Positions 15,112 to 46,451 of a stretch of 64,000 bases of DNA are shown in pieces (within the stretch, counting starts at the first letter, position 1; the number at the start of each line of letters is the position of its first letter). Made by a program: the position numbers and the translations under genes. The notes under the pieces are model-generated. The model had not been told where the DNA came from. It ran no database searches and saw only the letters and a list, made by a program, of their open reading frames with translations. Where the stretch lies: positions 372,001 to 436,000 of the forward strand of contig NZ_CP050299.1 in the NCBI RefSeq assembly GCF_014189455.1. Reading direction: 5' to 3'. The DNA comes from Mesorhizobium huakuii. Its GTDB lineage: Bacteria; Pseudomonadota; Alphaproteobacteria; Rhizobiales; Rhizobiaceae.

Positions 15112-15440
15112 CGTTTCTGACCAAATATCGAGAGGCCCGCCTGCCTTGGTACACCATCTATTCGACTGTGCCGGAGTTCTCCGCGGCGGTCAGTGCCAGG
15201 GCTCATGGTCAATGCCAGGGCTCATGGTCAATGGCTGAGGGACCTGCCGGCTCAGTGTCGCTCTATCTCCACATTCCGTTCTGCCGATCGGTGTGCTGGT
15301 ATTGCGGCTTCCCTACCACCATCACCCGCCAAGATGCGGCGGTGGTGCGTGACGAGATCCGTTTGGTCTCGGAGCAAACACCGCAGCCACTGCCCGTGAG
15401 CGACGTCCATTTCGGCGGCGGAACGCCGGCGCCGCCTGGC
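15112..15440 (+). pseudogene. hemN: Truncated duplicate of hemN
   Basis: This segment repeats the first ~100 codons of the intact hemN at 19418 with high identity: 'LPWYTIYSTVPEFSAAV', 'SLYLHIPFCRSVCWYCGFPT' and 'VRDEIRLVSEQTPQPLPVSD'. The homology stops at 'HFGGGTPAPPG'. The N-terminal part is disrupted where an 18-19 bp unit (AGGGCTCATGGTCAATGCC) is tandemly duplicated at about 15197-15234, and an internal deletion removes ~6 codons. The iron-sulfur Cys motif remains, but the rest of the protein is missing, so it cannot be functional. Confidence 0.9.
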
Positions 15441-19417: not shown

Positions 19418-20746
19418 TTGCAGACTTCGTTTCTGGCCAAATATCGCGAGGCCCGCCTGCCCTGGTACACCATCTATCCGACTGTGCCGGAGTTCTCCGC
19501 GGCGGTCGGTGCAGAGGCTTATGCGGAATGGCTCAGGGACCTACCGGCTGACGATTCGGTGTCACTCTATCTCCACGTTCCATTCTGCCGATCGACGTGC
19601 TGGTATTGCGGCTTCCCTACCACCATCACCCGCCAAGATGCTCCGATTCTCAAGTATCTGGCGGTGGTGCGTGACGAGATCCGTTTGGTCTCGGAGCAAC
19701 CGCCGCAGCCGCTGCCCGTGAGCGACGTCCATTTCGGCGGCGGAACGCCAACCCTCATCGGGCCAGCGGAGTTCTTGGCCATCATGGAGTGCCTACGGCG
19801 CCGCTTCGCGTTCAGGAAGACGACCGCCGTTGCAGTCGAGATCGATCCGCGCACGTTCACGGCCGAGATGGCCGAAGCCTTAGCAGCAGCCGGCGTGAAC
19901 CGCGCCAGCCTCGGCGTGCAGAGCTTCGATCCCATTGTTCAAAAAGCGATCAACCGGGTCCAGAGTGAGGCGCAGACGGCGGCTGCCGTCGAAATGCTGC
20001 GCCGGCATGGAGTAAGCCGCATCAACTTCGACCTGATCTTCGGTCTCCCGCATCAGACGGTGCGGTCCTGCGTCGAGACCGCGACGGCGGCGGTCGCCAT
20101 ACGCCCCAACCGGCTTGCGGTGTTCGGCTACGCGCACATTCCATCCGCTATAAAGAATCAGCGCCTGATCGAGGAGACAGCGCTGCCGGACAGCGCTGCC
20201 CGTGCCGAACAGGCTGCAGCCGTGGCCGAGACGCTGGTTGCCGCCGGCTACCGAGAGATCGGGCTCGACCATTTCGCCTTGCCCGACGACGAACTCGCGC
20301 TGGCGCAGGAAACCGGGCGCCTGCGGCGCAACTCACTGGGCTACTCGGCTGACACCTGCAAAACGCTGATCGGTTTCGGCGCGTCCGCTATCGGGCGGGT
20401 TGGCGAGGGTTACGTCCAGAACGAGGTCACACGGGATTGCTACAGCCGTCATATCGCAGCTGGCCGTCTGGCGACGTCACAGGGCTATCGTCTCACCGAC
20501 GAAGACCGCGTGCGAGCCGCAATCATCGAGCGGCTGATGTGCGATTTGGAGGCCGATGTGCCGGCAATCTGTGCCGCCCACGAATTTGATCCGATCCGTT
20601 TTCCCGATTCCGCCGAACGCTTGGCGATGCTGGTCAAGGACGGGATCGTCGACATCGAAGATGGTATCATCCGCGTGCGGCAGGAACATCGCTTTGTGAT
20701 TCGCGCTGTTGCTGCCGCCTTCGATGCCTTTCTCGCAAATCGCTGA
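19418..20746 (+). CDS. hemN: Oxygen-independent coproporphyrinogen III oxidase (HemN)
   Basis: This 442-residue radical SAM enzyme converts coproporphyrinogen III to protoporphyrinogen IX without oxygen, which suits haem synthesis in low-oxygen nodules. The [4Fe-4S] motif CRSTCWYCG (CX3CX2C) lies at about residues 55-63. 'HFGGGTPTLIGP', 'VEIDPRTF', 'LGVQSFDPIVQKAINR' and 'NFDLIFGLPHQT' follow in the usual HemN order. The length is normal. No ATG is available at the expected N-terminus; the frame opens with TTG (MQTSFLAKYREARLPWY). A truncated copy lies 4 kb upstream, separated by IS debris. Confidence 0.95.
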   Translation: MQTSFLAKYREARLPWYTIYPTVPEFSAAVGAEAYAEWLRDLPADDSVSLYLHVPFCRSTCWYCGFPTTITRQDAPILKYLAVVRDEIRLVSEQPPQPLPVSDVHFGGGTPTLIGPAEFLAIMECLRRRFAFRKTTAVAVEIDPRTFTAEMAEALAAAGVNRASLGVQSFDPIVQKAINRVQSEAQTAAAVEMLRRHGVSRINFDLIFGLPHQTVRSCVETATAAVAIRPNRLAVFGYAHIPSAIKNQRLIEETALPDSAARAEQAAAVAETLVAAGYREIGLDHFALPDDELALAQETGRLRRNSLGYSADTCKTLIGFGASAIGRVGEGYVQNEVTRDCYSRHIAAGRLATSQGYRLTDEDRVRAAIIERLMCDLEADVPAICAAHEFDPIRFPDSAERLAMLVKDGIVDIEDGIIRVRQEHRFVIRAVAAAFDAFLANR

Positions 20747-35479: not shown

Positions 35480-36893
35480 CATTACAGTTGCATATTTATC
35501 TACGGTCTGAATCTATGGGTCTCCATGATTCGGAGGTCATGGATGACAGGTGCATCAATCGAGACGACGCTTGAGCTTTGGGCATCATCGCTGCGTGACG
35601 TGAAGGCTCGCATGCGCGGACTGTTTACGCAGGAGCGAGTTGCAGCCTCTGCGAACCTCTTCCTGGACGGCCTGCTGGGTGACGAGCGGCGTAAGACAGG
35701 TTGGATGCGCGCTGAGGCGGCCGGTGACCCCGGCCCGTGGCGGCAACAAGCCGTTCTGGGTCGCGGGCGTTGGGACGCGGACGCACTTCGCGACATCGTG
35801 CGAGAGTATGTTGTAGAAAACCTCGCCACGGATGATGCGGTCCTGGTCATCGACGAGACGGGCTTCCTCAAGCAGGGCAAGACGTCGTGCGGTGTTGCGC
35901 GTCAATATACAGGTTCGGCAGGCAAGATAACGAACTGCCAGATCGGTGTGTTCGCCGCCTATGTGTCCGCTCGCGGTCATGCCTTTATCGACCGGGCCTT
36001 GTACTTGCCCAAAAGCTGGACCGGAGATCGGGCAAGGCTTGCAGCAACCCATGTTCCTGAGGCTATAGCCTTCGCTACCAAGCCAGGCTTGGCTGTCGAT
36101 ATGATACGGCGTGCGCTGGCAGCCGATGTGCCGTTTTCATGGGTGGCCGCAGATGCGGTGTATGGCGTCGGGGACGTCGAAGGAACCCTGCGCCGAGCCT
36201 GCAAAGGCTACGTTCTTGGGGTCAAATCGGACCACCATTTCGGCTCCTGGTCGGGTAAGCCTCCGGTCGCCGGCACAGCTCAGGAGATCGCCCGTGATCT
36301 TGATCCAACTGCATGGCAGCGTCTTTCCGCCGGTGAGGGCACCAAAGGCGCGCGGCTTCATGACTGGGCCTACTGCGAACTCGCCGATCTCGATGCCGAC
36401 GAATATAACGAGACGAAATCGGGGCTTTGGACCCGTGGCCTCCTAATCCGGCGCAATATCAGCGACGGTGATCTCGCATTCTTCACCACATGGTGCCCGG
36501 CCGGGACGGGCATCCAGACGCTCGTTTCCGTTGAAGGCCATCGCTGGGCGATCGAAGACAGCTTCGAGACCGCCAAGAACGAGCTCGGACTCGATCACAA
36601 CGAAACCCGGTCATGGCATGGCTGGCATCGCCACGTCTCCCTCGTCATGCTGGCCTTCGCCATGATGGCGGTGATCCGATACCGCGCCAATGACGTGACG
36701 CCCCAAAAAAGACCGCGGATGCCGACCATCAGGATTTGATCCGCTGGTCTATCCAGGAAGTCCGGCGCATCGCCATCAGACTCGCCCAGCGTCGCATAAA
36801 ACCCGCCTACGTCATCGCATGGTCATGCTGGAGGCGCGCCCATCAGGCGGCCGCTCGACGAGCTCATCTGAAATCTAAACCGCAACTGTAATG
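35480..36893 (+). mobile_element. IS701-family insertion sequence with perfect ends
   Basis: The element is 1414 bp, bounded by the inverted repeat CATTACAGTTGC at both ends (perfect over 12 bp) and a 4-bp target duplication TTAG (35476-35479 and 36894-36897). It carries one transposase gene. The intact ends suggest recent insertion between the acyltransferase gene and the nod cluster. Confidence 0.9.
35543..36891 (+). CDS. IS701-family transposase with a frameshift near the C-terminus
   Basis: The ATG at 35543 follows GGAGGTCATGG. Family features are '[20 protein letters not shown]' followed by '[20 protein letters not shown]', '[13 protein letters not shown]' and '[20 protein letters not shown]' followed by '[16 protein letters not shown]'. 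The frame ends early at 36739 but continues in another frame from the A6 run at 36705-36710 ('[20 protein letters not shown]') to a stop at 36891. Joining the frames gives ~449 residues, normal for the family. Either a real indel, a sequence error or slippage at the A-run explains it. Confidence 0.85.
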
Positions 36894-36950
36894 TTAGGCT
36901 TCGTGGACAAAGCTTGACGCTAGACTCGGTCGCTGATTCAAGGCTGTCTT

Positions 36951-37182
36951 TTGGAGGCAGCGTTGGGCGCGCGGATTGGGGTATCGGACGAGGAATGGGC
37001 ACTGATCGGGCCGCTGCTGCCAGCACAGCGGGGTCGAGGGTGCCGTCCGGCGCAGGATAATCGGCGCTATTTCGAAGGCATGATATGTATGGCCCGAACC
37101 GGGGCGCAATGGCGTCATCTGCCTGATGAATATGGCAAATGGAACAGTGTCTTCCGCCGATGCCGACGATGGGTCGCGACGG
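36951..37182 (+). mobile_element. IS5-family transposase N-terminal remnant
   Basis: The text '[20 protein letters not shown]' and '[20 protein letters not shown]' followed by '[13 protein letters not shown]' is the N-terminus of an IS5-family transposase. It ends abruptly at the nodD relic, so it probably marks an IS end that truncated nodD. Confidence 0.8.
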
Positions 37183-37186
37183 GGGT

Positions 37187-37561
37187 TCAAGCAAGAACCA
37201 TTCCTCGATGGAGGGCTTCAGAATACGCCCGAACCTGACCGAGACGTGCCTCATCGACATGTATCTCTCGAACGTAAGCTGCCGGACAGCTGCTTGTGGT
37301 GGACAGCCATAATCGAGCACTGGATGTGCAGAGATCGTCGCGAACCGCGGGGGCAAGTGCTGCCGCACGCGGGGTCACAAAACGTTCGCGGCCGCTCGTC
37401 GTAAACAGTTCATCGCCGAAAAAATCGCGCAGCGGGGGCGACGGCCGCACTCATGGCCGGCTGACTGAGGTTGATGGGGCGGGCCGCCGCCGAGAGGCTG
37501 CGCTCCACCAGCAGCGCGTCGAGCACAACGAGGAGATTTAGGTCAATCCCTTTGAAACGCA
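37187..37561 (-). pseudogene. nodD: nodD relic 1 (N-terminal part only)
   Basis: On the minus strand, [20 protein letters not shown] begins exactly like NodD, continues with '[20 protein letters not shown]' and, after a frameshift, '[19 protein letters not shown]'. Only about the first 120 codons remain before the IS5 remnant. It is divergent from nodA with a nod box between, the classical nodD-nod box-nodA arrangement. Confidence 0.88.
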
Positions 37562-37572
37562 TGTCTTTAGCT

Positions 37573-37621
37573 ATCCATAGCGTGGATGCCGTCAATCGAA
37601 ACAAACGATTTTACCGATTCT
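37573..37621 (+). promoter_or_regulatory. nod box 1 (nodAFEG)
   Basis: ATCCATAGCGTGGATGCC, then ATCGAAACAAACGATTTTAC and CGATT, is an almost perfect nod box. It lies about 265 bp upstream of nodA and should be the NodD-dependent promoter of nodA-nodF-nodE-(nodG). Confidence 0.95.
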
Positions 37622-37672
37622 GGAGAACGTCGCATAGGGAGAATTCAAAGAAGCCCTAAAGGAAAATCGTCG

Positions 37673-37846
37673 ATGTTTGCGTTAGCTCCAAGGAGCATTC
37701 TCGGCTCGGAGGAGCATCTTCTGGTGTACGCCTTCCGGCATACGCCGAAACATCAATCAACTCGCATGTCGGTTGCGGCTTGGTTCTTCGGTGATCCGCG
37801 CAAGGTCCATCGCGTCAGCTCGACGCGACAAGCTCTCCATGCGTAG
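37673..37846 (+). CDS. Small leader open reading frame between nod box 1 and nodA
   Basis: A 57-codon frame starts MFALAPRSILGSEEHLLVYA. The same start and first ~25 codons occur in the duplicated leader behind nod box 2, where the frame is later shifted. About half of the differences in that part are silent. It may be a chance frame in a conserved leader; no family is recognised. Confidence 0.25.
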   Translation: MFALAPRSILGSEEHLLVYAFRHTPKHQSTRMSVAAWFFGDPRKVHRVSSTRQALHA

Positions 37847-37886
37847 GCGCTTATCTCAAAAACAGCAATCAAGATGAGGTATTTCC

Positions 37887-38477
37887 ATGGGCTCTGACGT
37901 ACGGTGGAAGTTGTGCTGGGAAAATGAGTTGCAACTGGCCGACCATGTCGAACTCTCCGATTTCTTTCTAAAGACTTATGGACGGCATGGGGCCTTCCTC
38001 GCAAAGCCATTCGAAGGCGGCCGTAGCTGGGCCGGTGCAAGGCCGGAATTCCGCGCAATCGGTTACGACGCGCACGGCATAGCGGCTCATATTGGCATAC
38101 TGCGCCGCTTCATCAAAGTTGGCGAGGTCGATCTACTGGTGGCCGAAATTGGCTTATACGGGGTCCGTCCGGATCTTGAGGGACTCGGAATCAGCTTTTC
38201 ACTGAGCGTTGTGTACCCATTGCTGCAGCGGATGGGGGTTCCATTTGTGTTCGGCACGGTTCGGCAGGCAATGCGGAACCACGTTGAGAGGTTCTGCCGC
38301 GGCGGTCTGGCGAGCATTGTGTCGGGGGTTGAGGTACGGTCCACCCTCGCAAATATACATCCCTACATGCCGCCTACCCGCGTCGAGGACGTGATCGTCT
38401 TCGTTGCGCCAATTGGACGCTCGATGGACGAGTGGCCGCCCGGCACCCTGATCGACCGAAACGGTCCAGAATTGTAA
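37887..38477 (+). CDS. nodA: NodA, Nod factor N-acyltransferase
   Basis: This 196-residue acyltransferase transfers a fatty acid from an acyl carrier protein to the free amino group of the chitin oligomer made by NodC and NodB. The sequence shows the conserved blocks '[20 protein letters not shown]', '[20 protein letters not shown]' and '[20 protein letters not shown]', and the ending '[18 protein letters not shown]'. The length is normal. It follows nod box 1, and a nodB relic rather than nodB lies downstream, so nodA is separated from nodBC in this strain. Confidence 0.98.
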
Positions 38478-38481
38478 GCAG

Positions 38482-38650
38482 GACTACACATGTGAGTGCC
38501 GGGTGATGCGCTGACGCCGACCTTTGAGGACTGGCCTAACCCACATTGCATACCGCAGATCCGTCATCTGCTGGCGCCACATCGGGTGCCGGCGACCTTC
38601 TTCGTCATCAGAGCCTACGCCGCCGATCGGCCGGAACTCAGCCCGCCCTT
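38482..38650 (+). pseudogene. nodB: nodB relic downstream of nodA
   Basis: The DNA aligns to the start of the intact nodB at 42490. Shared stretches include CACCGCAGATCC-like and 'GCGACCTTCTTCGTCATC'-like sequence (encoding VPATFFVI as in VAATFFVI), followed by a stretch matching 'ADQPELIRR'. Internal deletions and frameshifts are present, and the remaining two thirds of the gene are gone. Confidence 0.85.
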
Positions 38651-38749
38651 ATGAGCATGAGCTTTGTCGGTGGCTATTTTCGCAACGCGGCCCGCAGGAG
38701 TTGAGCCGCGCCCACGTCAAACCAGCTGAAATCGAAAGGAACAGACAGA

Positions 38750-39031
38750 ATGGCTGATCAACTCGCGACGGAAATCATTACCATAATCAAGAAACGCGTC
38801 GAATCTGAGAACTTTGCGGGAGCGTTTCGACCCATCGTCGGCGAAATAACGACGGAGACGGAAGTGACCGCGCTCGGCATCGATTCGCTGGGACTGGCGG
38901 ACGTGCTCTGGGACCTCGAGCAAGCCTATGGCATTAAGATCGAAATGAACACATCGGAGGCGTGGTCGGATCTGCAGAATGTTGGCGACATCGTGAAAGC
39001 CATCCGCAGCTTGCTTGCTGAGGCAGCTTGA
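38750..39031 (+). CDS. nodF: NodF, specialised acyl carrier protein
   Basis: This 93-residue acyl carrier protein carries special polyunsaturated fatty acids for Nod factors. The 4'-phosphopantetheine Ser is in '[16 protein letters not shown]'. The length and the insertion relative to AcpP are typical of NodF. The stop is directly followed by the nodE start. NodF works with NodE to make alpha,beta-unsaturated acyl chains passed to NodA. Confidence 0.96.
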
Positions 39032-40240
39032 ATGGACAGGCGGGTCGTCATCACCGGAATAGGCGGGCTGTGCGGGCTGGGCACTGATGCCCCCTCCATC
39101 TGGAAAGAGATGCGCGAAGGTCGCTCAGCAATCGGCCCGATTGTCACTTCAGAGCTTCATGGGTTGACCGGCACGATCGGTGCCGAGATCAAGACGCTCC
39201 CTGAGCACGACATCGACCGCAAGCAGCTCGTCACCATGGACCGCTTCAGCCTGCTTGCCGTGCTTGCAGCGCGGGAAGCCATGCGACAGGCCGGACTTTC
39301 CTGCGATGAACGAAATGCCTATCGCTTCGGTGCGATAGTGGGCGTCGGCGGCAGCGGCTGGGAAGCGATCGAGGCAAGCTACCGCGCTCTCCTTTTGAAC
39401 GGCGCGCGCCGTGCTGGCGTCATGGACGTACCCAAGGCGATGCCGAGTGCCGCTGCCGGCCAGGTCAGCATGAGCCTCGGCCTGCGCGGGCCGGTCTTCG
39501 GCGTCACCTCCGCCTGCGCCTCTGCCAACCATGCGATTGCCTCAGCCGTAGACCAGATCAGGTGCGGCCGGGCCGACGTGATGCTTGCCGGAGGCAGCGA
39601 CGCGCCATTCGTATTTTGTGTGGTGAAAGCGTGGGAAGCAATGCGCGTGATTGCGCCAGATACCTGCAGGCCCTTCTCCTCCGACAGGAGGGGCTTGGTG
39701 CTGGGCGAGGGTGCGGGGATGGCAGTGCTGGAAAGCTATGAACATGCCACTGCTCGCGGCGCAACGATTATTGCCGAGATCGCCGGCATCGGCCTTTCCG
39801 CTGATGCCTTCAACCTCGTCGCGCCGGCTGTCGAGGGGCCGGAGGCGGCGATGCGCGCCTGCCTTGCCGATGCCGGGCTGAATGCCCAGGATGTCGACTA
39901 CATCAATGCGCACGGCACGGGCACCAAGGCCAATGATCGGATGGAGACGGAGGCGATCAAGCGAGTCTTCGGTGGCCACGCCAACTCGATGTCCATCTCT
40001 TCCACCAAGTCCATGCATGCGCATTGCCTCGGCGCCGCGAGCGCGCTTGAAATGATCGCCTGCGTGATGGCAATCCAAGAGGGTGTCGTGCCGCCGACCG
40101 CCAATTATCGCGAGCCAGACCCCGATTGCGATCTCGATGTCACGCCCAACGTCGCGCGCGAGCGCAAGGTCCGCGTGGCACTGAGCAACGCCTTCGCCAT
40201 GGCCGGCATGAACGCAGTTCTGGCATTCAGGCAGGTGTAG
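39032..40240 (+). CDS. nodE: NodE, beta-ketoacyl synthase for Nod factor acyl chains
   Basis: This 402-residue KAS II-type condensing enzyme has the active-site Cys in '[20 protein letters not shown]' and the two His in '[17 protein letters not shown]' and '[20 protein letters not shown]'. NodE determines chain length and unsaturation with NodF and is a host-range determinant. It starts immediately after nodF. Confidence 0.97.
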
Positions 40241-40517
40241 GACGACATGCCGGCAAGGTCACCTTCCGTATCCCGATGTTTGCGGAATCCCCGATCGGTC
40301 CGTGGCGGCCTCCTTGCTCAGGTGGGCTGAAGGGTTGGAGTGCAAGTACTTGCAGTAGCCCAGTGAAGCAGCAGATTGAGGTGATCACGTCGGTCATCCG
40401 GCGCCTGGAATTATCGTGGCCGAGACCTCTGCGCTGCGCGAGTTCGCGGCGAGGAAGCTGCCACGAACCGAGACTTCTGGCGCGGCGATGCTGCAGCATT
40501 TGAAAAGAGCATAATAA

Positions 40518-41255
40518 ATGTTGGAACTGACTGGCCGCAAGGCGCTCGTCACCGGCGCATCCGGGGGCATCGGCGAGGCGATCGCCAGGGTGCTGCATGC
40601 GCAAGGCGCCGTCGTCGGCCTGCACGGCACCCGCGTCGAGAAGCTGGAGACGCTGGCCGCCGAGCTTGGCGACCGGGTCAAGCTGTTTCCGGCCAACCTG
40701 TCGAACCGCGACGAGGTCAAGGCGCTCGGCCAGAAGGCGGAGGCCGATCTCGAAGGTGTCGACATCCTGGTCAACAACGCCGGCATCACCAAGGACGGCC
40801 TGTTCGTGCGCATGTCTGACGCCGACTGGGACACCGTGCTCGAAGTCAATCTGACCGCCGTGTTCAGGCTGACGCGCGAACTCACCCATCCAATGATGCG
40901 CCGCCGCCACGGCCGCATCATCAACATCACCTCGGTGGTCGGCGTCACCGGCAATCCCGGCCAGACCAACTACTGCGCCTCCAAGGCCGGCATGATCGGT
41001 TTTTCCAAGTCGCTGGCGCAGGAGATCGCCACCCGCAACATCACCGTCAACTGCGTCGCTCCGGGCTTCATCGAATCGGCGATGACCGGCAAGCTCAACG
41101 ACAAGCAGAAGGAGGCGATTATGGCGGCGATCCCGACGCGCCGCATGGGCACCAGCGCTGAAGTCGCGTCCGCCGTTGCCTATCTCGCCTCCAACGAAGC
41201 CGGCTACGTCACCGGCCAGACCATCCATGTGAATGGCGGCATGGCGATGATCTGA
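40518..41255 (+). CDS. nodG: NodG, FabG-like 3-oxoacyl-ACP reductase
   Basis: This 245-residue short-chain dehydrogenase has the NAD(P) motif 'VTGASGGIGEAIAR', 'VNNAGITKDGLFVRM', the catalytic Ser region 'INITSVVGVTGNPGQ' and YCASKAG (Tyr/Lys). It reduces 3-oxoacyl-ACP in fatty acid elongation. It lies 277 bp after nodE on the same strand, matching nodFEG clusters. Its composition is more GC-rich than nodA/nodB, closer to a chromosomal fabG, so it may be a recruited housekeeping copy. Confidence 0.9.
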   Translation: MLELTGRKALVTGASGGIGEAIARVLHAQGAVVGLHGTRVEKLETLAAELGDRVKLFPANLSNRDEVKALGQKAEADLEGVDILVNNAGITKDGLFVRMSDADWDTVLEVNLTAVFRLTRELTHPMMRRRHGRIINITSVVGVTGNPGQTNYCASKAGMIGFSKSLAQEIATRNITVNCVAPGFIESAMTGKLNDKQKEAIMAAIPTRRMGTSAEVASAVAYLASNEAGYVTGQTIHVNGGMAMI

Positions 41256-41520
41256 GCACGGGCTGACCGGAGCTTACCTGTTCCAAAACGCCCTTGCGTC
41301 ACGGTCCGCGACCTGCGCAACCAGCTATCTGCCACGAAGATCTGGGATTCATCCAGCATCACCGAAGGGGCAGCAATATGCGTGATTTCAGATAGCCCAG
41401 CAGAGCGGCGTGATCGCCCTTGGCCGTCGGCCGCCCTGATGGCCAAGAGCCGCAGGTAGTGGCGGCCGAGATTACGCGGGAGATGGGCCACCGTGCGGGT
41501 AGGCATCACGCGAGAGGTCT
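41256..41520 (+). other. Intergenic region after nodG, nothing recognised
   Basis: No gene, terminator or repeat is convincing here. The sequence leads into the second nodD relic. Confidence 0.4.
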
Positions 41521-42108
41521 CCACTCTAACGAACTTAGGGGGCGAGTGCTTCCGCACGCGGTATTAGAATACGTTCGCGGCTGTTCATGGCAATATTTCA
41601 TCGCGGAAAGAATCGTGCAGCCCCGCGACGACATGGCCGGTTGGCTTAGAGCATTTTGATGGAAGCATACCCACGAGCGTTTGCGAGGTAGTTTGCGCAT
41701 TCGGTGGATGTGGTTTTATGGATGAGCTGGCCCATCTCCACCCCTCGCGCCTGAGAAACTGCCAAACCGCATTACGGGACACTAAGATACCGCGTGCGGC
41801 CAGCTTCTGCCGATGCAGCGTCAGATTCGAGGTCTGCTCGATCCGCTCGATGATGATGAACGCCCGATGCTCCAGAACGCTGTGGCGATGGCCACCCCAG
41901 GCCGAGCGCTACCCGTAGCTCGATAGCGCTGGACCACACAAAGCGACGCCAAAGCGCGCCGCAAGCTGGCGGGCTAGTCCCGAAGATTGTTCGAAAGGGC
42001 TCGTGTCATCCGATGCTTCGGCTTGCCGCGGCAGTGAGGCCGCGCCCGGCGAGCGCGCGTCGTGCACCACGAGGAGATTTACATCGAGCCGTTTGAAAAC
42101 GCATGTCA
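41520..42108 (-). pseudogene. nodD: nodD relic 2, interrupted by an IS630 scrap
   Basis: At about 41950-42105 (minus) the start 'CVFKRLDVNLLVVHDARSPG' is a degenerate NodD N-terminus. At about 41525-41630 a further piece parallels nodD relic 1 (the '[14 protein letters not shown]' region). The two are separated by IS-derived sequence. With relic 1 it forms half of a duplicated nodD-nod box segment. Confidence 0.7.
41640..41945 (-). mobile_element. IS630-family remnant with internal deletion
   Basis: The minus strand contains 'VSRNAVWQFLRREG' (an N-terminal-domain motif of IS630 transposases) close to a tail resembling 'ECANYLANARGYASIK', the usual C-terminus; the catalytic core is missing. 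The outer sequence TAGAGCATTTTGATGG resembles the end of the IS630 element at 18198. It splits nodD relic 2. Confidence 0.5.
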
Positions 42109-42113
42109 TCAGC

Positions 42114-42163
42114 TATCCAAAGCGTGGATGCATCTGATCGAAACAAACGATTTTACCGATTTT
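42114..42163 (+). promoter_or_regulatory. nod box 2 (nodBCIJ-nodH-nodPQ)
   Basis: ATCCAAAGCGTGGATGC, then ATCGAAACAAACGATTTTAC and CGATT, is nearly identical to nod box 1. It lies about 330 bp upstream of nodB and should drive the long nodB operon. Confidence 0.93.
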
Positions 42164-42379
42164 GCAGAACGTCGCATAGGGAGAATTCAAGGAAGTCCTA
42201 AAGGAACGTTGTCGATGTTTGCCTTAGCTCCGAGGAGCACTTTCGGCTCCGAGGAGCATTTTCTGGTGTACGCCTTCCGGCATACGCCCAACATCAATCA
42301 AGTCGCATGTCGATTGCGGCTTGGTTCTTCGGTGACCCGTGCAAGGTCCATCGCGTCGACACGACGCGACAACCTCTCC

Positions 42380-42493
42380 ATTCCATCCGACACGGTTTGG
42401 CAGGCGATGCCGAACCATGTTGCGCCAATTCGATGCTCGATGGGCGAGTGGCCGCCCGGCACCCTGATCGATCGGAGCGTTCCAAACCTATGA
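42380..42493 (+). pseudogene. nodA: nodA relic upstream of nodB
   Basis: Downstream of nod box 2, a stretch equal to an internal piece of nodA (TTTGGCAGGCGATGCCGAAC, compare the 'TVRQAMRNH' region) is joined directly to the nodA 3' end. There '[18 protein letters not shown]' parallels '[18 protein letters not shown]' of the intact nodA. The stop overlaps the nodB ATG (ATGA). Most of nodA is deleted. Confidence 0.9.
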
Positions 42494-43146
42494 AAAATGT
42501 GGACTACATGTGCGAAGTGCCCAGTGACTGCGCTGACGGCACTCAAGATCGCAGCGTCTATTTGACGTTTGACGACGGGCCCAATCCAGTTTGCACACCG
42601 CAGATCCTCGATTTGTTGGCGCAACATCGGGTGGCGGCGACGTTCTTCGTCATCGGTGCCCACGCAGCAGACCAGCCGGAACTCATCCGACGAATGATTG
42701 CAGAAGGGCACGAGGTAGCCAATCACACGATGACTCATCCGGACCTGTCCAGATGCGAACCCGGCGAAGTCGAACGTGAAATAGTCGAGGCAAGCAACGC
42801 CATCAGGATGGCGTGTCCCGAGGCCACGGTGCGGCGCATGCGCGCGCCGTATGGGGTCTGGACCGAGGACGTGCTCACTACGTCGGCGCGCGCTGGATTG
42901 GCATGCGTCCATTGGTCAGTTGACCCGCGAGACTGGGCTCGCCCTGGCGTCGACGCGATTGTCGATGAGGTGCTCACCGGTGTTGGGCCGGGCGCAATTG
43001 TGCTCTTGCACGACGGGTGGCCCGAGGAGTTGAAATCGGCCACCTACGCCAGTCTGCGTGACCAGACTGTCACGGCGCTATCCATCCTGATTCCAGCGCT
43101 GCATCACCGCGGTTTTGTAATCCGCCCGCTCCCTCAACATCACTGA
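42490..43146 (+). CDS. nodB: NodB, chitooligosaccharide deacetylase
   Basis: This 218-residue carbohydrate esterase family 4 enzyme removes the acetyl group from the non-reducing end of the NodC product. Metal-binding motifs are present: 'VYLTFDDGPNPVCTP' (Asp-Asp) and 'EVANHTMTHPDLSR' (HxxxH). 'RMRAPYGVWTEDVL' and 'GAIVLLHDGWPEE' complete the active site. The ATG overlaps the stop of the nodA relic. Confidence 0.98.
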   Translation: MKNVDYMCEVPSDCADGTQDRSVYLTFDDGPNPVCTPQILDLLAQHRVAATFFVIGAHAADQPELIRRMIAEGHEVANHTMTHPDLSRCEPGEVEREIVEASNAIRMACPEATVRRMRAPYGVWTEDVLTTSARAGLACVHWSVDPRDWARPGVDAIVDEVLTGVGPGAIVLLHDGWPEELKSATYASLRDQTVTALSILIPALHHRGFVIRPLPQHH

Positions 43147-43160
43147 ACATACGAGATCCC

Positions 43161-44513
43161 ATGGACCTGCTTACCACGACCAGTACTGTCGCCGTCGCGT
43201 GCTATGCACTGCTCTCGACTGTTTATAAGGGCATGCAGGCGGTTTATTCCCTGCCGCCAACCGTTGCACCGGCGTCGGAAGACCTGGTCGGCTCCGACCT
43301 CTGGCCGAGCGTGGATGTCATCATCCCCTGCTACAACGAAGGCCCGCTTACGCTCTCGGCGTGCCTAGATTCCATTGCAAACCAGGAATACGCCGGAAAG
43401 CTACGTGTCTACGTGGTTGATGACGGTTCTGGAAATCGCGACGCCGTCATTCCCATTCACGACAATTACGCCGGCGACCCGCGATTCGACTTCATTCTGC
43501 TCCCAGAGAATGTCGGCAAGCGCAAAGCGCAGATCGCCGCGATACGTCGCTCATCTGGAGATTTGGTGCTCAACGTCGACTCGGACACGACACTTGCGTC
43601 CGACGTCATCAGGAAGCTTGCACGGAAGATGCAGGATCCAGCAATCGGCGCTGCCATGGGCCAGTTGACGGCAAGCAACCGGAGCGACACTTGGCTGACC
43701 CGATTGATCGATATGGAGTACTGGCTGGCCTGCAACGAGGAGAGGGCGGCGCAAGCCCGCTTCGGTGCCGTCATGTGCTGTTGCGGCCCCTGTGCTATGT
43801 ACCGCCGATCTTCGCTGCTTTCGCTGCTAGACCAGTACGAGACGCAGATGTTTCGGGGCAAGCCAAGCGACTTCGGTGAGGATCGCCATCTTACGATCCT
43901 CATGCTGGAGGCAGGCTTTCGAACCGAGTACGTTCCGGACGCTATTGCTGTAACGGTGGTTCCCGATAGGTTAGGACCTTATCTGCGCCAACAACTGCGC
44001 TGGGCACGGAGCACTTTCCGGGACACGCTGCTTGCGCTGCGCCTGTTGCCCGGCCTCGATCGCTATCTTACATTGGACGTCGTCGGACAGAATCTTGGCC
44101 CGCTACTTCTTGCCCTGTCTGTAATAGCCGGGATTGCGCAGTTTGCACTGACAGCCACGCTGCCGTGGCCGACAATCCTCGTTATTGCAGCAATGACCAT
44201 CATTCGGTGCACCGTGACAGCATGTCGAGCTCGGCAAGCTCGATTTATCGGCTTTTCACTGCACACTTTTATCAACATCTTTCTGTTACTCCCCTTGAAA
44301 GCCTATGCTTTGTGCACCTTGAGCAATAGTGATTGGCTTTCACGCAAGACTGCCACCCTGCCCAACGCCGACAAAAAGCAGATCATCGTCGCAAACCCGA
44401 TTGCCGGAGTTGGTACAGGCAGTTCGGGAAGTGCTGAGGCAATTCGAAGAACGGATCTTCCGCGCGATTCTTCAAAGTTGGTGAACGCGGACAGCGTTTG
44501 CAGCGCTGAGTGA
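43161..44513 (+). CDS. nodC: NodC, chitin oligosaccharide synthase
   Basis: This 450-residue family 2 membrane glycosyltransferase makes the N-acetylglucosamine backbone. An N-terminal membrane segment is followed by 'VDVIIPCYNEGPLTLSACLD', 'VVDDGSGN' (residue ~86), 'LVLNVDSDTT' (~139), 'GEDRHLT' (~239) and the processivity motif QQLRWAR (~277). C-terminal membrane helices occupy ~310-386. It starts 14 bp after nodB. Confidence 0.98.
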   Translation: MDLLTTTSTVAVACYALLSTVYKGMQAVYSLPPTVAPASEDLVGSDLWPSVDVIIPCYNEGPLTLSACLDSIANQEYAGKLRVYVVDDGSGNRDAVIPIHDNYAGDPRFDFILLPENVGKRKAQIAAIRRSSGDLVLNVDSDTTLASDVIRKLARKMQDPAIGAAMGQLTASNRSDTWLTRLIDMEYWLACNEERAAQARFGAVMCCCGPCAMYRRSSLLSLLDQYETQMFRGKPSDFGEDRHLTILMLEAGFRTEYVPDAIAVTVVPDRLGPYLRQQLRWARSTFRDTLLALRLLPGLDRYLTLDVVGQNLGPLLLALSVIAGIAQFALTATLPWPTILVIAAMTIIRCTVTACRARQARFIGFSLHTFINIFLLLPLKAYALCTLSNSDWLSRKTATLPNADKKQIIVANPIAGVGTGSSGSAEAIRRTDLPRDSSKLVNADSVCSAE

Positions 44514-44744
44514 TCGAGTGCGTTGGCTGGATGGACACGTTGTGAGCTTGGGCAACATCCATCAATTGTCAGCACGGCGATCGATTGCATCTCGACGCTA
44601 ATCCGTCCGGTGAGAGCGACACACGCTTGCTTCGGCTGTGACTATCCAAAGGGGCCGTCACTATGCGATGGCCGGTTCTGCCAAGAAATATTCGCAAGTA
44701 AGCTACCGGGCCGGCTGATGGCCTCTTAAGACTGAGATAGACAC

Positions 44745-45659
44745 ATGTCCAAAGTAGCAATCGACCTTGCCGGCGTGAAGAAGTCCTTCGGCGACAAGCT
44801 TGTTGTGAACGGGCTGTCGTTCACCGTTGCGTCGGGAGAGTGCTTCGGTTTGCTGGGGCCGAACGGTGCGGGCAAGAGCACGATTGCGCGTATGCTCCTT
44901 GGCATGACAGTGCCTGATGCGGGCAAGATCACGGTTCTTGGAGAGCCAGTGGGTGCGCGGAGTCGCTTGGCACGCAAGAGCATCGGCGTGGTTCCGCAGT
45001 TCGACAACCTTGACCAGGAATTCACCGTACGAGAGAACCTGTTGGTGTTCGGGCGCTACTTCGGCATGAGCACACGCAAGATCAAAGAGGTCATCCCGTC
45101 GCTCCTCGAGTTCGCCCGTCTTGAGAGCAAGGCGGATGCACGTGTCGGCGAACTATCTGGCGGCATGAAACGGCGTTTGACACTGGCACGTGCGCTGATC
45201 AACGACCCCCAGCTACTCGTGATGGACGAGCCGACGACCGGCCTCGACCCGCACGCGCGACACCTGATTTGGGAGCGTCTGCGTTTCCTGCTGGGGCGCG
45301 GTAAGACGATCATTTTGACTACCCATTTTATGGAAGAGGCCGAGCGTTTATGCGATCGGCTGTGCGTTCTGGAGCATGGACGCAAACTCGCCGAAGGCAG
45401 CCCTCATGCCCTGATTGAGGAACACATCGGGTGCCAGGTGATCGAGATCTTCGGCGGGAATCCCCAGGAGTTGGTTTCGCTGATCAGGCCATACGTGCAG
45501 CGCGTCGAGGTGAGCGGCGAGACGCTCTTTTGCTATACGGCCGATCCGGAGCAGGTTCGCGTACAACTGCGCGGGCGCGCGGGTCTGCGCCTTCTGGAGC
45601 GTCCACCCAGTCTGGAGGACGTTTTCTTGCGGCTGACCGGACGCGAGATGGAGAAGTGA
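44745..45659 (+). CDS. nodI: NodI, ATP-binding subunit of the Nod factor exporter
   Basis: This 304-residue ABC ATPase exports Nod factors with NodJ. Walker [17 protein letters not shown], the signature [15 protein letters not shown], Walker [21 protein letters not shown] and the H-loop '[20 protein letters not shown]' are all intact. It lies 231 bp after nodC, an unusually wide gap in which I recognise nothing, and 3 bp before nodJ. Confidence 0.97.
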
Positions 45660-45662
45660 ACG

Positions 45663-46451
45663 ATGGGTAAAGGGTTTTCGGCGGCTCTACCCGCCAACGC
45701 TTGGAACTGGATTGCGGTATGGCGCCGCAACTATCTGGCATGGACGAAGGTCGCGCTCGCGTCGATTCTCGGTAACCTCGCCGATCCTATGATCTACCTG
45801 TTCGGACTCGGCACTGGTCTCGGAATGATGGTAGGTCGCGTTGAAGACGCGTCGTACCCTGCTTTTTTGGCAGCCGGCATGGTCGCGACAAGTGCGATGA
45901 CCGCGTCCACCTTCGAAACAATTTATGCGACTTTCCCTCGCATGAACGAACAGCGGACCTGGGAAGCGATCCTGCACACACAACTTACCCTCGGCGACAT
46001 CGTTCTCGGTGAGTTGGTGTGGGCAACCACAAGGGCCTTTCTGGCCGGCACGGCAATTGCGATGGTGGCCGTCATAGCGGGCTACTCAGCATGGTCGTCC
46101 GTCCTCTATGTGCTACCAGTCATCGCTCTCACTGGGTTGGCCTTTGCGAGCCTGGCGATGATCGTAACCGCGCTTGCGCCCAGTTACCACTACTTCATAT
46201 TCTACCAGACGCTCTTCCTCACACCCATGTTGTTCCTGTCCGGCGCTGTCTTCCCGGTCACTCAACTGCCAAGCACCTTTCAGCACATAGCGGGCATCTT
46301 ACCGCTGGCGCATTCGATCGACCTGATTCGTCCGGGCATGCTTGATCGCCCGGCTGGGGACATCGCCCTGCACATTGGTGCGCTTTGCATATACGCGGTA
46401 GTGCCGTTCTTCCTCTCGATGGTGCTGCTTCGCCGGCGCCTGCTGCGTTGA
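45663..46451 (+). CDS. nodJ: NodJ, membrane subunit of the Nod factor exporter
   Basis: This 262-residue ABC-2 permease has about six membrane helices. '[20 protein letters not shown]', '[14 protein letters not shown]', '[20 protein letters not shown]' and '[20 protein letters not shown]' are typical of NodJ. It begins directly after nodI. Confidence 0.97.

What the first reader, a model, noticed from the sequence alone, without database searches (positions are those of the whole stretch)
37187..42720. nodA and nodBC were separated by duplication and reciprocal loss, and both relics are still visible
Two segments share the same layout: nodD relic, nod box, ~250-bp leader, nodA, nodB. In copy 1 (37187-38650) nodA is intact and nodB is a fragment. 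In copy 2 (41520-43146) nodB is intact and nodA is reduced to an internal scrap plus its 3' end. nodFEG sits between them. This explains the split nodA / nodBCIJ arrangement known in some Mesorhizobium by a visible mechanism: tandem duplication of nodD-nodA-nodB, insertion or retention of nodFEG, then complementary decay.
Basis: seen in the sequence. Interest (0 to 1): 0.85.

Follow-up and report, generated by a model that had tools for sequence, protein, structure and literature searches.

The report
Split nodA and nodBC nodulation operons
In this root-nodule bacterium two gene sets that build the nodulation signal are scarred copies of one operon; related genomes suggest that the copying is old, that one of the scars stands before the signal's fatty-acid genes in several genera, and that the nodA gene was lost from one or the other copy several times.

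Summary
Copy 1: nodD relic, nod box, leader, intact nodA, nodB fragment, nodFEG. Copy 2: nodD relic, nod box, leader, two nodA scraps, intact nodBCIJ. The predicted intermediates exist: 10 of 146 Mesorhizobium genomes keep nodA in both places (hand tally; five read in full).

Two parts of the proposed history change. First, copy 1's nodB did not decay in complement to nodA. In 31 of 35 distinct nodF loci nodB similarity stops at nodB base 191-201, 77-126 bp before nodF, in Sinorhizobium and Rhizobium too; with twelve more loci, 36 of 47. So a truncated nodD-nodA-nodB copy was probably joined to nodFE long before this split; only nodA was lost reciprocally.

Second, the two leaders are sisters (99/94), but genome G308 made its own near-identical pair, and there the junction also removed nodA. 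The nodBC-side nodA was lost by four different deletions, the nodFE-side nodA by others. Copy 1's nodD relic changes partner at the nod box.

The split, and 'DNA rearrangements' in Oxytropis strain N33, are in print. Eight full-text searches listed no report of the nodB-nodF scar; the key 1997 paper was not readable.

The parts
37187..37563 (-). nodD relic of copy 1 (N-terminal part with internal deletion)
   Evidence: 90-95% to nodD1, nodD2 and nodD3 of the same genome in its two pieces; similarity to the nodD1 site breaks at the nod box
37573..37619 (+). nod box 1
   Evidence: 3 mismatches to the recalled consensus, 0 expected by chance
37571..37886 (+). leader 1 (316 bp, long type) before nodA
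   Evidence: in one clade with leader 2, 99/94; length table
37887..38477 (+). nodA, intact (196 aa)
   Evidence: Pfam PF02474 4.4e-93; the only full-length NodA place listed for this genome (its row counts a second, weaker match that is not listed); dN/dS 0.28 against L059 and L100, 0.66 against AR10 on few changes
38519..38643 (+). nodB scar: nodB nt 75-199 (80.8% to the intact nodB at 42490)
   Evidence: end point shared with other nodF loci
38644..38749 (+). spacer between the nodB/nodF junction and nodF (106 bp)
   Evidence: alignment
38750..39031 (+). nodF (acyl carrier protein)
39032..40240 (+). nodE (beta-ketoacyl synthase)
40518..41255 (+). nodG (3-oxoacyl-ACP reductase type)
41530..41649 (-). 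nodD relic of copy 2, first piece
   Evidence: 72-77% to copy 1 relic; best outside this strain group 80.5% over 128 (G291) and 85.1% over 94 (G308)
41650..42018 (.). about 370 bp of other sequence inside the copy 2 nodD relic; probable insertion remnant
   Evidence: absent from copy 1; AR10 has IS5 transposase genes at the same point
42019..42110 (-). nodD relic of copy 2, second piece
42111..42381 (+). nod box 2 (about 42113-42159) and leader 2
   Evidence: 86.6% to leader 1; trees
42388..42422 (+). nodA scrap (nodA nt 366-400)
   Evidence: 85.7% over 35 bp
42422..42484 (+). nodA 3' scrap (nodA nt 520-582)
   Evidence: 88.9% over 63 bp
42490..43146 (+). nodB, intact
   Evidence: Pfam PF01522 4.4e-38
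43161..46451 (+). nodC (43161-44513), nodI (44745-45659), nodJ (45663-46451)

Best explanation
These are two nod-box operons made from one by an old partial duplication, later reshuffled. Step 1 (inferred): in an ancestor, a nodD - nod box - nodA - nodB copy that stopped at nodB base about 200 became joined in front of nodFE. This gave the acyl-chain genes a NodD-controlled promoter and a nodA, and left a nodB scar before nodF. Step 2 (shown by sequence): some Mesorhizobium lineages still carry two nodA genes, one before nodFE (short leader) and one before nodBC (long leader), diverged by dS 0.31-0.88. Step 3 (shown by relics): one of the two was lost repeatedly. The nodBC-side nodA went in the window type, in 7653R/G040, in G009/G034 and in G308, leaving different pieces; the nodFE-side nodA decayed in other lineages. 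Step 4 (strong in G308, inferred for the window): recombination between the two leaders made the promoters alike, and in G308 the same junction removed most of nodA. Step 5 (function, inferred): in this strain NodA is made with NodFEG from one nod box and NodBCIJ from another, so acyl transfer is co-regulated with synthesis of the special acyl chain.
For: Scar: 31 of 35 distinct nodF loci (32 of 36 rows; L061 repeats AR10) match nodB at BLAST E <= 0.05 with the match ending at nodB nt 191-201 in window numbering. Shuffle control: seven of twelve tested loci 0/300 (S. meliloti, S. numidicum, Rhizobium sp. 007, L102, L104, L063, L068), R. johnstonii 4/300; six regions before nodE, nodG or nodH give 135-291/300. 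Further loci: 4 of 10 and 1 of 2 with the same end point. NodE tree: 2-3 changes of the scar state. Two-nodA genomes: 10 of 146 (hand tally). nodA tree: nodFE-side copies of five two-copy genomes plus 7653R form one clade (100/97), their nodBC-side copies fall elsewhere. Leaders in the five two-copy genomes 149-150 bp (nodFE side) against 288-298 bp (nodBC side). Within each side dN/dS is 0.13-0.27 (nodFE) and 0.26-0.40 (nodBC) between genomes. Distinct deletion remnants. G308: its two leaders 98% alike; its 5' nodA piece 45/45 to its own nodFE-side nodA, its 3' piece 75% to that gene but 87% to a nodBC-type nodA. Window leaders in one clade, 99/94.
Against: By simple distance leader 1 is nearer to G291's nodBC leader (0.105) than to leader 2 (0.130). 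nodFE-side nodAs do not form one clade (AU p 1.5e-5 with L101, 0.043 without), and the protein tree leaves the window's nodA unresolved. Eleven of 47 distinct nodF loci show no significant scar: three end at the same base but are marginal (26, 34, 54 of 300), and one of these, 54/300, is no better than R. jaguaris at 52/300, whose match ends elsewhere. N. galegae and R. leguminosarum trifolii lie inside the scar-bearing NodE group without it, which needs losses. Protein-level matches run past codon 67 in some loci (codons 70-88, mostly with stops), so the end point rests on the DNA alignments. G007 has a nodA before nodFE with no scar, so not every nodA-nodFE linkage is of this origin. No expression or Nod-factor data were available.
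Confidence: 0.73

Rival explanations
1. One reading: one tandem duplication of complete nodD-nodA-nodB in this lineage, with nodFEG between, then complementary decay of nodB in copy 1 and nodA in copy 2.
For: Same order of parts in both copies; leaders in one clade; two-nodA genomes exist.
Against: In the 32 matching rows nodB DNA similarity never continues past base 201 before nodF, across genera; the nodA duplication is older than this lineage.
Confidence: 0.12
2. Two separate acquisitions: the nodA-nodFEG block and the nodBCIJ block came from different donors and look like duplicates because nod loci share the layout.
For: Copy 1's nodD relic has a different closest relative from copy 2's; relics near two open nodD genes (G000:C4, about 81-83 kb) fall in other leader clades; leader 1 is slightly nearer G291 by distance.
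Against: Leaders 1 and 2 (with AR10's) form one clade at 98/94.9 and 99/94; the tree joining leader 1 with the other long nodFE-side leaders is rejected (AU p 4.5e-99).
Confidence: 0.13
3. The two leaders are alike only because regulation conserves them, so their similarity says nothing of history.
For: A nod box was found before nodA in most loci examined.
Against: Similarity covers about 200 bp beyond the box and reaches nodD and nodA scraps that can no longer code; other lineages' leaders differ more.
Confidence: 0.02

Closest known systems
nodAFEG and nodBCIJ of Rhizobium (Mesorhizobium) sp. N33 from Oxytropis arctobia (Cloutier et al. 1996, MPMI 9:523; 1997, MPMI 10:401, titled 'evidence of DNA rearrangements'; seen only as citations in PMC4432818)
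   Same: Same operon contents and host group; very probably the same arrangement as this window (inference).
   Different: I could not read these papers or obtain the N33 sequence, so how much of the scar they report is unknown.
Mesorhizobium huakuii 7653R, nodA separated from nodBC (PMC4072884, passages read; record CP006582.2)
   Same: nodA with nodFEG, nodBCIJ apart; nodBC-side nodA remnant present (nt 1-71); nodB scar present. G040 has the same layout.
   Different: Keeps a short-leader nodFE-side nodA; different remnant. The paper gives a 22-kb separation; in CP006582.2 about 8 kb lie between nodA and nodB on one strand.
nodA2/nodFEG and nodFEGA of Loteae symbiosis islands (PMC7643969, passages; PMC4070662, passages)
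   Same: An extra nodA linked to nodFEG; in G013, G021 and G025, which have nodFEG then nodA, the nodB scar is also before nodF.
   Different: nodA lies after nodG there; PMC7643969 describes nodA2 and nodFEG as acquired, and the passages I saw mention no relics.
nodFE of Sinorhizobium meliloti and Rhizobium leguminosarum
   Same: The nodB scar lies before nodF with end points 191-201.
   Different: No nodA piece was found in the 400 bp before nodF in S. meliloti 2011, S. numidicum and R. johnstonii. In R. johnstonii nodABC is complete and beside nodD. R. leguminosarum trifolii WSM2304 shows no scar.

Membership tests
Common nod gene operon (nodABC) | nodA, nodB and nodC under one nod box | tested here: not met
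   nodA ends 4.0 kb before nodB, each with its own leader
Split nodA-nodFEG / nodBCIJ arrangement (N33, 7653R type) | intact nodA followed by nodF, nodE, nodG | tested here: met
Split nodA-nodFEG / nodBCIJ arrangement (N33, 7653R type) | nodBCIJ with its own leader and no intact nodA in front | tested here: met
Split nodA-nodFEG / nodBCIJ arrangement (N33, 7653R type) | sequence identity with the N33 locus itself | not tested
   no N33 record appeared in the listings I obtained; closest listed are 582, AR07, AR02, AR10
Duplication with reciprocal loss | two copies share descent | tested here: met
   leader clade 99/94, with the distance caveat
Duplication with reciprocal loss | each copy once held both genes complete | tested here: not met
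   nodA yes (two-copy genomes); nodB no sign of it: truncated at a shared point before nodF
Duplication with reciprocal loss | losses found in both directions, with different remnants | tested here: met
Gene conversion between paralogous leaders | within-genome copies closer than orthologues, with sharp tract ends | tested here: inconclusive
   met in G308 (leaders 98% alike; nodA 5' piece 45/45, 3' piece 75%); in the window the first part is met by the tree only
Flavonoid-induced nod operon | NodD-dependent transcription | not testable with these tools
   nod box sequence only

The most novel reading that the evidence does not exclude
The acyl-chain genes nodFE entered the NodD regulon by being joined behind a truncated nodD-nodA-nodB copy, and the nodB scar of that event still stands before nodF in Mesorhizobium, Sinorhizobium and Rhizobium. 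Ever since, the paired promoters have recombined, and nodA has repeatedly been settled in the nodFE or the nodBC operon, which couples or uncouples the acyltransferase from its special fatty acid.
Probability: 0.58. Interest if true: 0.72.

Novelty: new variant of a known kind. Interest (0 to 1): 0.57.

Why it matters
It gives an order of events, read from scars in DNA, for how the host-specific nodFE genes may have come under the control of the common nod genes, and it turns the odd split of nodA from nodBC into one outcome of a process seen in several states in living strains. It also makes a question testable: whether the nodFE-side and nodBC-side NodA proteins, kept side by side in ten genomes, prefer different acyl chains and so different hosts.

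Tried and rejected
Rejected: complementary decay of nodB; one clade for all nodFE-side nodAs; leader 1 with other nodFE-side leaders, and leader 2 with G308's nodBC leader (AU tests). Insertion of nodFE into a nodB gene has no support: the tblastn annotations showed no nodB or nodC piece directly after nodE or nodG in the loci read. Led nowhere: the search for a nodB fragment before nodF (mostly ecology papers using the index NODF); searches listed nothing on the scar. The nodA protein tree leaves the window's nodA unresolved. No absolute dating was attempted.

Limits of the counts. The genome tally was made by eye from coordinates. The match lists were cut short, and one search kept only E <= 1e-150, so weaker nodE genes may be missed. 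Of the ten two-copy genomes, G036, G005, G032, G106 and G139 were read in full and G008, G037, G143, G039 and G014 by coordinates only. Of 166 plasmid records with a NodF match I read loci from 15 chosen from its listing, plus S. alkalisoli, 7653R, 582 and AR10 found. Many nodF loci counted are close relatives, so the counts are not independent. Rows left out: L035 and L045 from the nodA trees; from the leader trees L028, L035, L045, L106 and one L060 row, and also L104, L012 and the other L060 row; L058 and L112 had no box match. For that I lowered two probabilities slightly.
Full report
What is there. The window lies on a 686-kb contig of a Mesorhizobium-type genome (G000:C4:372001-436000). 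Copy 1 runs nodD relic, nod box, 316-bp leader, intact nodA, nodB fragment, nodF, nodE, nodG. Copy 2 runs nodD relic, nod box, leader, two nodA scraps, intact nodB, nodC, nodI, nodJ. Alignment of the two copies gives 86.6% over 359 positions for the leader and shorter matches for the nodD, nodA and nodB pieces; at E <= 1e-5 the whole-window self-comparison shows only one other repeat, in a different gene. Three plasmid records hold the whole query at 98.1-98.7%: M. loti 582 from Oxytropis kamtschatica and the Oxytropis isolates AR07 and AR02. The Astragalus isolate AR10 has the same parts with an insertion.

The nodB fragment looks like a joining scar. I compared up to 400 bp before nodF with intact nodB genes for 36 nodF rows, 35 of them distinct loci (L061 repeats AR10's). 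In 31 of the 35 there is a match (BLAST E <= 0.05), and each match ends at nodB base 191-201 in the window's numbering, 77-126 bp before nodF; L060, L106, L111 and L112 have none. In G368 the piece is still nodB bases 1-200 at 88.5-89%, after an intact nodA. The scar is found in S. meliloti 2011, S. numidicum, Rhizobium sp. 007 and R. johnstonii 3841. Against 300 dinucleotide shuffles each, the first three gave 0/300 and R. johnstonii 4/300; six control regions before nodE, nodG or nodH gave 135-291/300, and a seventh, before nodC, contains nodB itself and says nothing. Of ten more loci outside Mesorhizobium, 4 of 10 gave 0/300 with the end at base 200-201 (S. medicae, S. garamanticum, Rhizobium sp. 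T1473, R. leguminosarum A1); of two more Mesorhizobium loci, G040 has it and G007 does not. In all, 36 of 47 distinct loci carry a match by these tests. Three of one NodE clade (S. alkalisoli, G216, A. pusense) are marginal (34, 26 and 54 of 300) but end at base 201; that shared end is their only support, since R. jaguaris reaches 52/300 with a match that ends elsewhere. Eight have none: N. galegae, R. leguminosarum trifolii WSM2304, CB3171, CC1099, R. jaguaris, S. americanum, G117 and G007. On a NodE tree the scar needs two to three changes, with N. galegae and WSM2304 lacking it inside the scar-bearing group. Protein-level alignments run on to codons 70-88 in some loci, mostly with stops, so the end point rests on DNA. 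My reading is that nodB in copy 1 was already cut when nodFE was joined on, long before nodA was lost from copy 2.

Intermediates. Searching 146 Mesorhizobium genomes for NodA, NodB and NodE and comparing coordinates by hand, 10 of 146 have an intact nodA before nodFE and another directly before nodB; five were read in full (L050-L054). Nine of 146 have nodA only before nodFE: five of the window type, G009, G034, G040 and the divergent G007. G043 has a nodFE-side nodA together with a nodABC set of another type. Among the 20 loci L050-L069, eight (L055, L056, L057, L063, L064, L067, L068, L069) have the nodFE-side nodA as a relic or missing, while another nodA stands elsewhere in the genome. 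In the nodA DNA tree the nodFE-side copies of the five two-copy genomes and 7653R form one clade (100/97), apart from the nodBC-side copies; the window's nodA groups with the nodFE-side nodAs of G009, G043 and G308 (94/94). The paralogues differ by dS 0.31-0.88; between genomes dN/dS is 0.13-0.27 on the nodFE side and 0.26-0.40 on the nodBC side, so both sides look constrained.

Different losses. The remnants of the nodBC-side nodA differ: window and AR10 keep bases 360-394 and 517-582; G308 keeps 1-46 and 476-582; G009 and G034 keep mainly 492-588; 7653R and G040 keep 1-71 (numbering varies by six bases with the reference). In the other direction G006, G003, G140 and G047 keep nodFE-side bases 1 to 234-244; G291, G025, G021 and G080 keep other pieces; and G020 has a nearly full-length pseudogene.

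Recombining leaders. In the five two-copy genomes the nodFE-side leaders are 149-150 bp and the nodBC-side leaders 288-298 bp; 7653R (152) and G368 (154) have short nodFE-side leaders; the window (316), G043 (311) and G308 (315) have long ones and G009 an intermediate one (196). Some outgroup nodBC leaders break the rule (G117 267, G216 152). The leaders of the window and AR10 form one clade (99/94). In G308, of another genus, the nodFE-side and nodBC-side leaders lie about 290 kb apart on one contig, are 98% alike and group together (98/84). Trees joining leader 1 with the other long nodFE-side leaders, or leader 2 with G308's nodBC leader, are rejected (AU p 4.5e-99 and 6.7e-9). So the two pairs became alike separately. 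In G308 the first 45 bases of the nodBC-side nodA remnant are identical to its nodFE-side nodA, while the 3' remnant is 75% to that gene and 87% to a nodBC-type gene: one junction appears to have replaced the promoter and removed most of nodA. In the window the shared tract stops about 46 bp before the nodA start; that a similar event removed nodA there is inference.

Relative age. Leaders 1 and 2 differ by a corrected distance of 0.130, while window and AR10 differ by 0.012-0.013 in leaders and by dS 0.018-0.020 in nodB, nodC and nodE. The leader pair is about ten times older than the split of these strains and younger than the split from the G308 and G043 types (0.20-0.25). Against this, leader 1 is 0.105 and leader 2 0.118 from G291's nodBC leader, so by distance alone the pair is no younger than that split.

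The nodD relics. Copy 1's relic is 94-95% (262-bp piece) and 90-94% (122-bp piece) identical to three open nodD genes of the same genome, two in tandem at about 81-83 kb of C4 and one on C3. Similarity to the first of these holds up to the nod box and stops there, while similarity to G308's nodFE-side leader begins there. Copy 2's relic is at most 80-85% to nodD genes outside this strain group. In front of the tandem nodD genes lie further short scraps of leader, nodA and nodB; one leader groups with the short nodFE-side leaders (95/82), the other with long nodBC-side leaders (94/97). The genome thus seems to keep remains of an older pair as well.

Function. Both operons keep a nod-box-like site. 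That NodA determines the acyl group is stated in PMC4619719 (passages), whose reference list holds the 2001 report of methyl-branched unsaturated chains in the Nod factors of N33 (title only). That co-transcription of nodA with nodFEG couples transfer to synthesis of that chain is inference.

What is in print. The split in 7653R is described in PMC4072884 (passages). nodA2/nodFEG and nodFEGA are described in PMC7643969 and PMC4070662 (passages). For N33, two papers on nodBCIJ and nodAFEG, the second titled with 'evidence of DNA rearrangements', were seen as citations only. Eight full-text searches listed no title or abstract start reporting the nodB scar before nodF; I did not read the listed papers through, and the library lacks most subscription journals, so this is weak evidence of novelty.

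Noticed in passing
window 15112-15427 and 19428-19749: A second direct repeat (82% over 334 positions): a fragment of the gene at 19418-20746, which looks like an oxygen-independent coproporphyrinogen oxidase (HemN-like; name from memory, not searched), left as a relic.
   Followed up: partly
L013 6900-9650 (G000:C4, about 81-83.6 kb): Two open tandem nodD genes (91.8% alike over 955 bp), each with a nod-box leader and short scraps of nodA or nodB in front, remains of an older nod cluster in the same genome.
   Followed up: partly
L014 8396-9319 (G000:C3): A third open nodD on another contig, about 94-95% to copy 1's relic, beside transposase-like frames.
   Followed up: no
window 35525-37238: A long transposase-like frame (404 aa) and a short transposase-like frame lie directly before copy 1 (names by eye).
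   Followed up: no
L055, L056 and L064: The unit nodD-nodA'-nodB'-nodF-nodE occurs twice before nodABCIJ in G006, G140 and G003, giving two different nodFE pairs.
   Followed up: partly
L144 (S. americanum CCGM7): A divergent NodE (end branch 0.68) with annotated nodA genes on both sides of nodFE.
   Followed up: no
L149 8317-9060 (G007:C60): A nodB starting at codon 58 and a second nodB 3' piece around a nodC start: a small internal duplication in a nodBCIJH operon without nodA.
   Followed up: no
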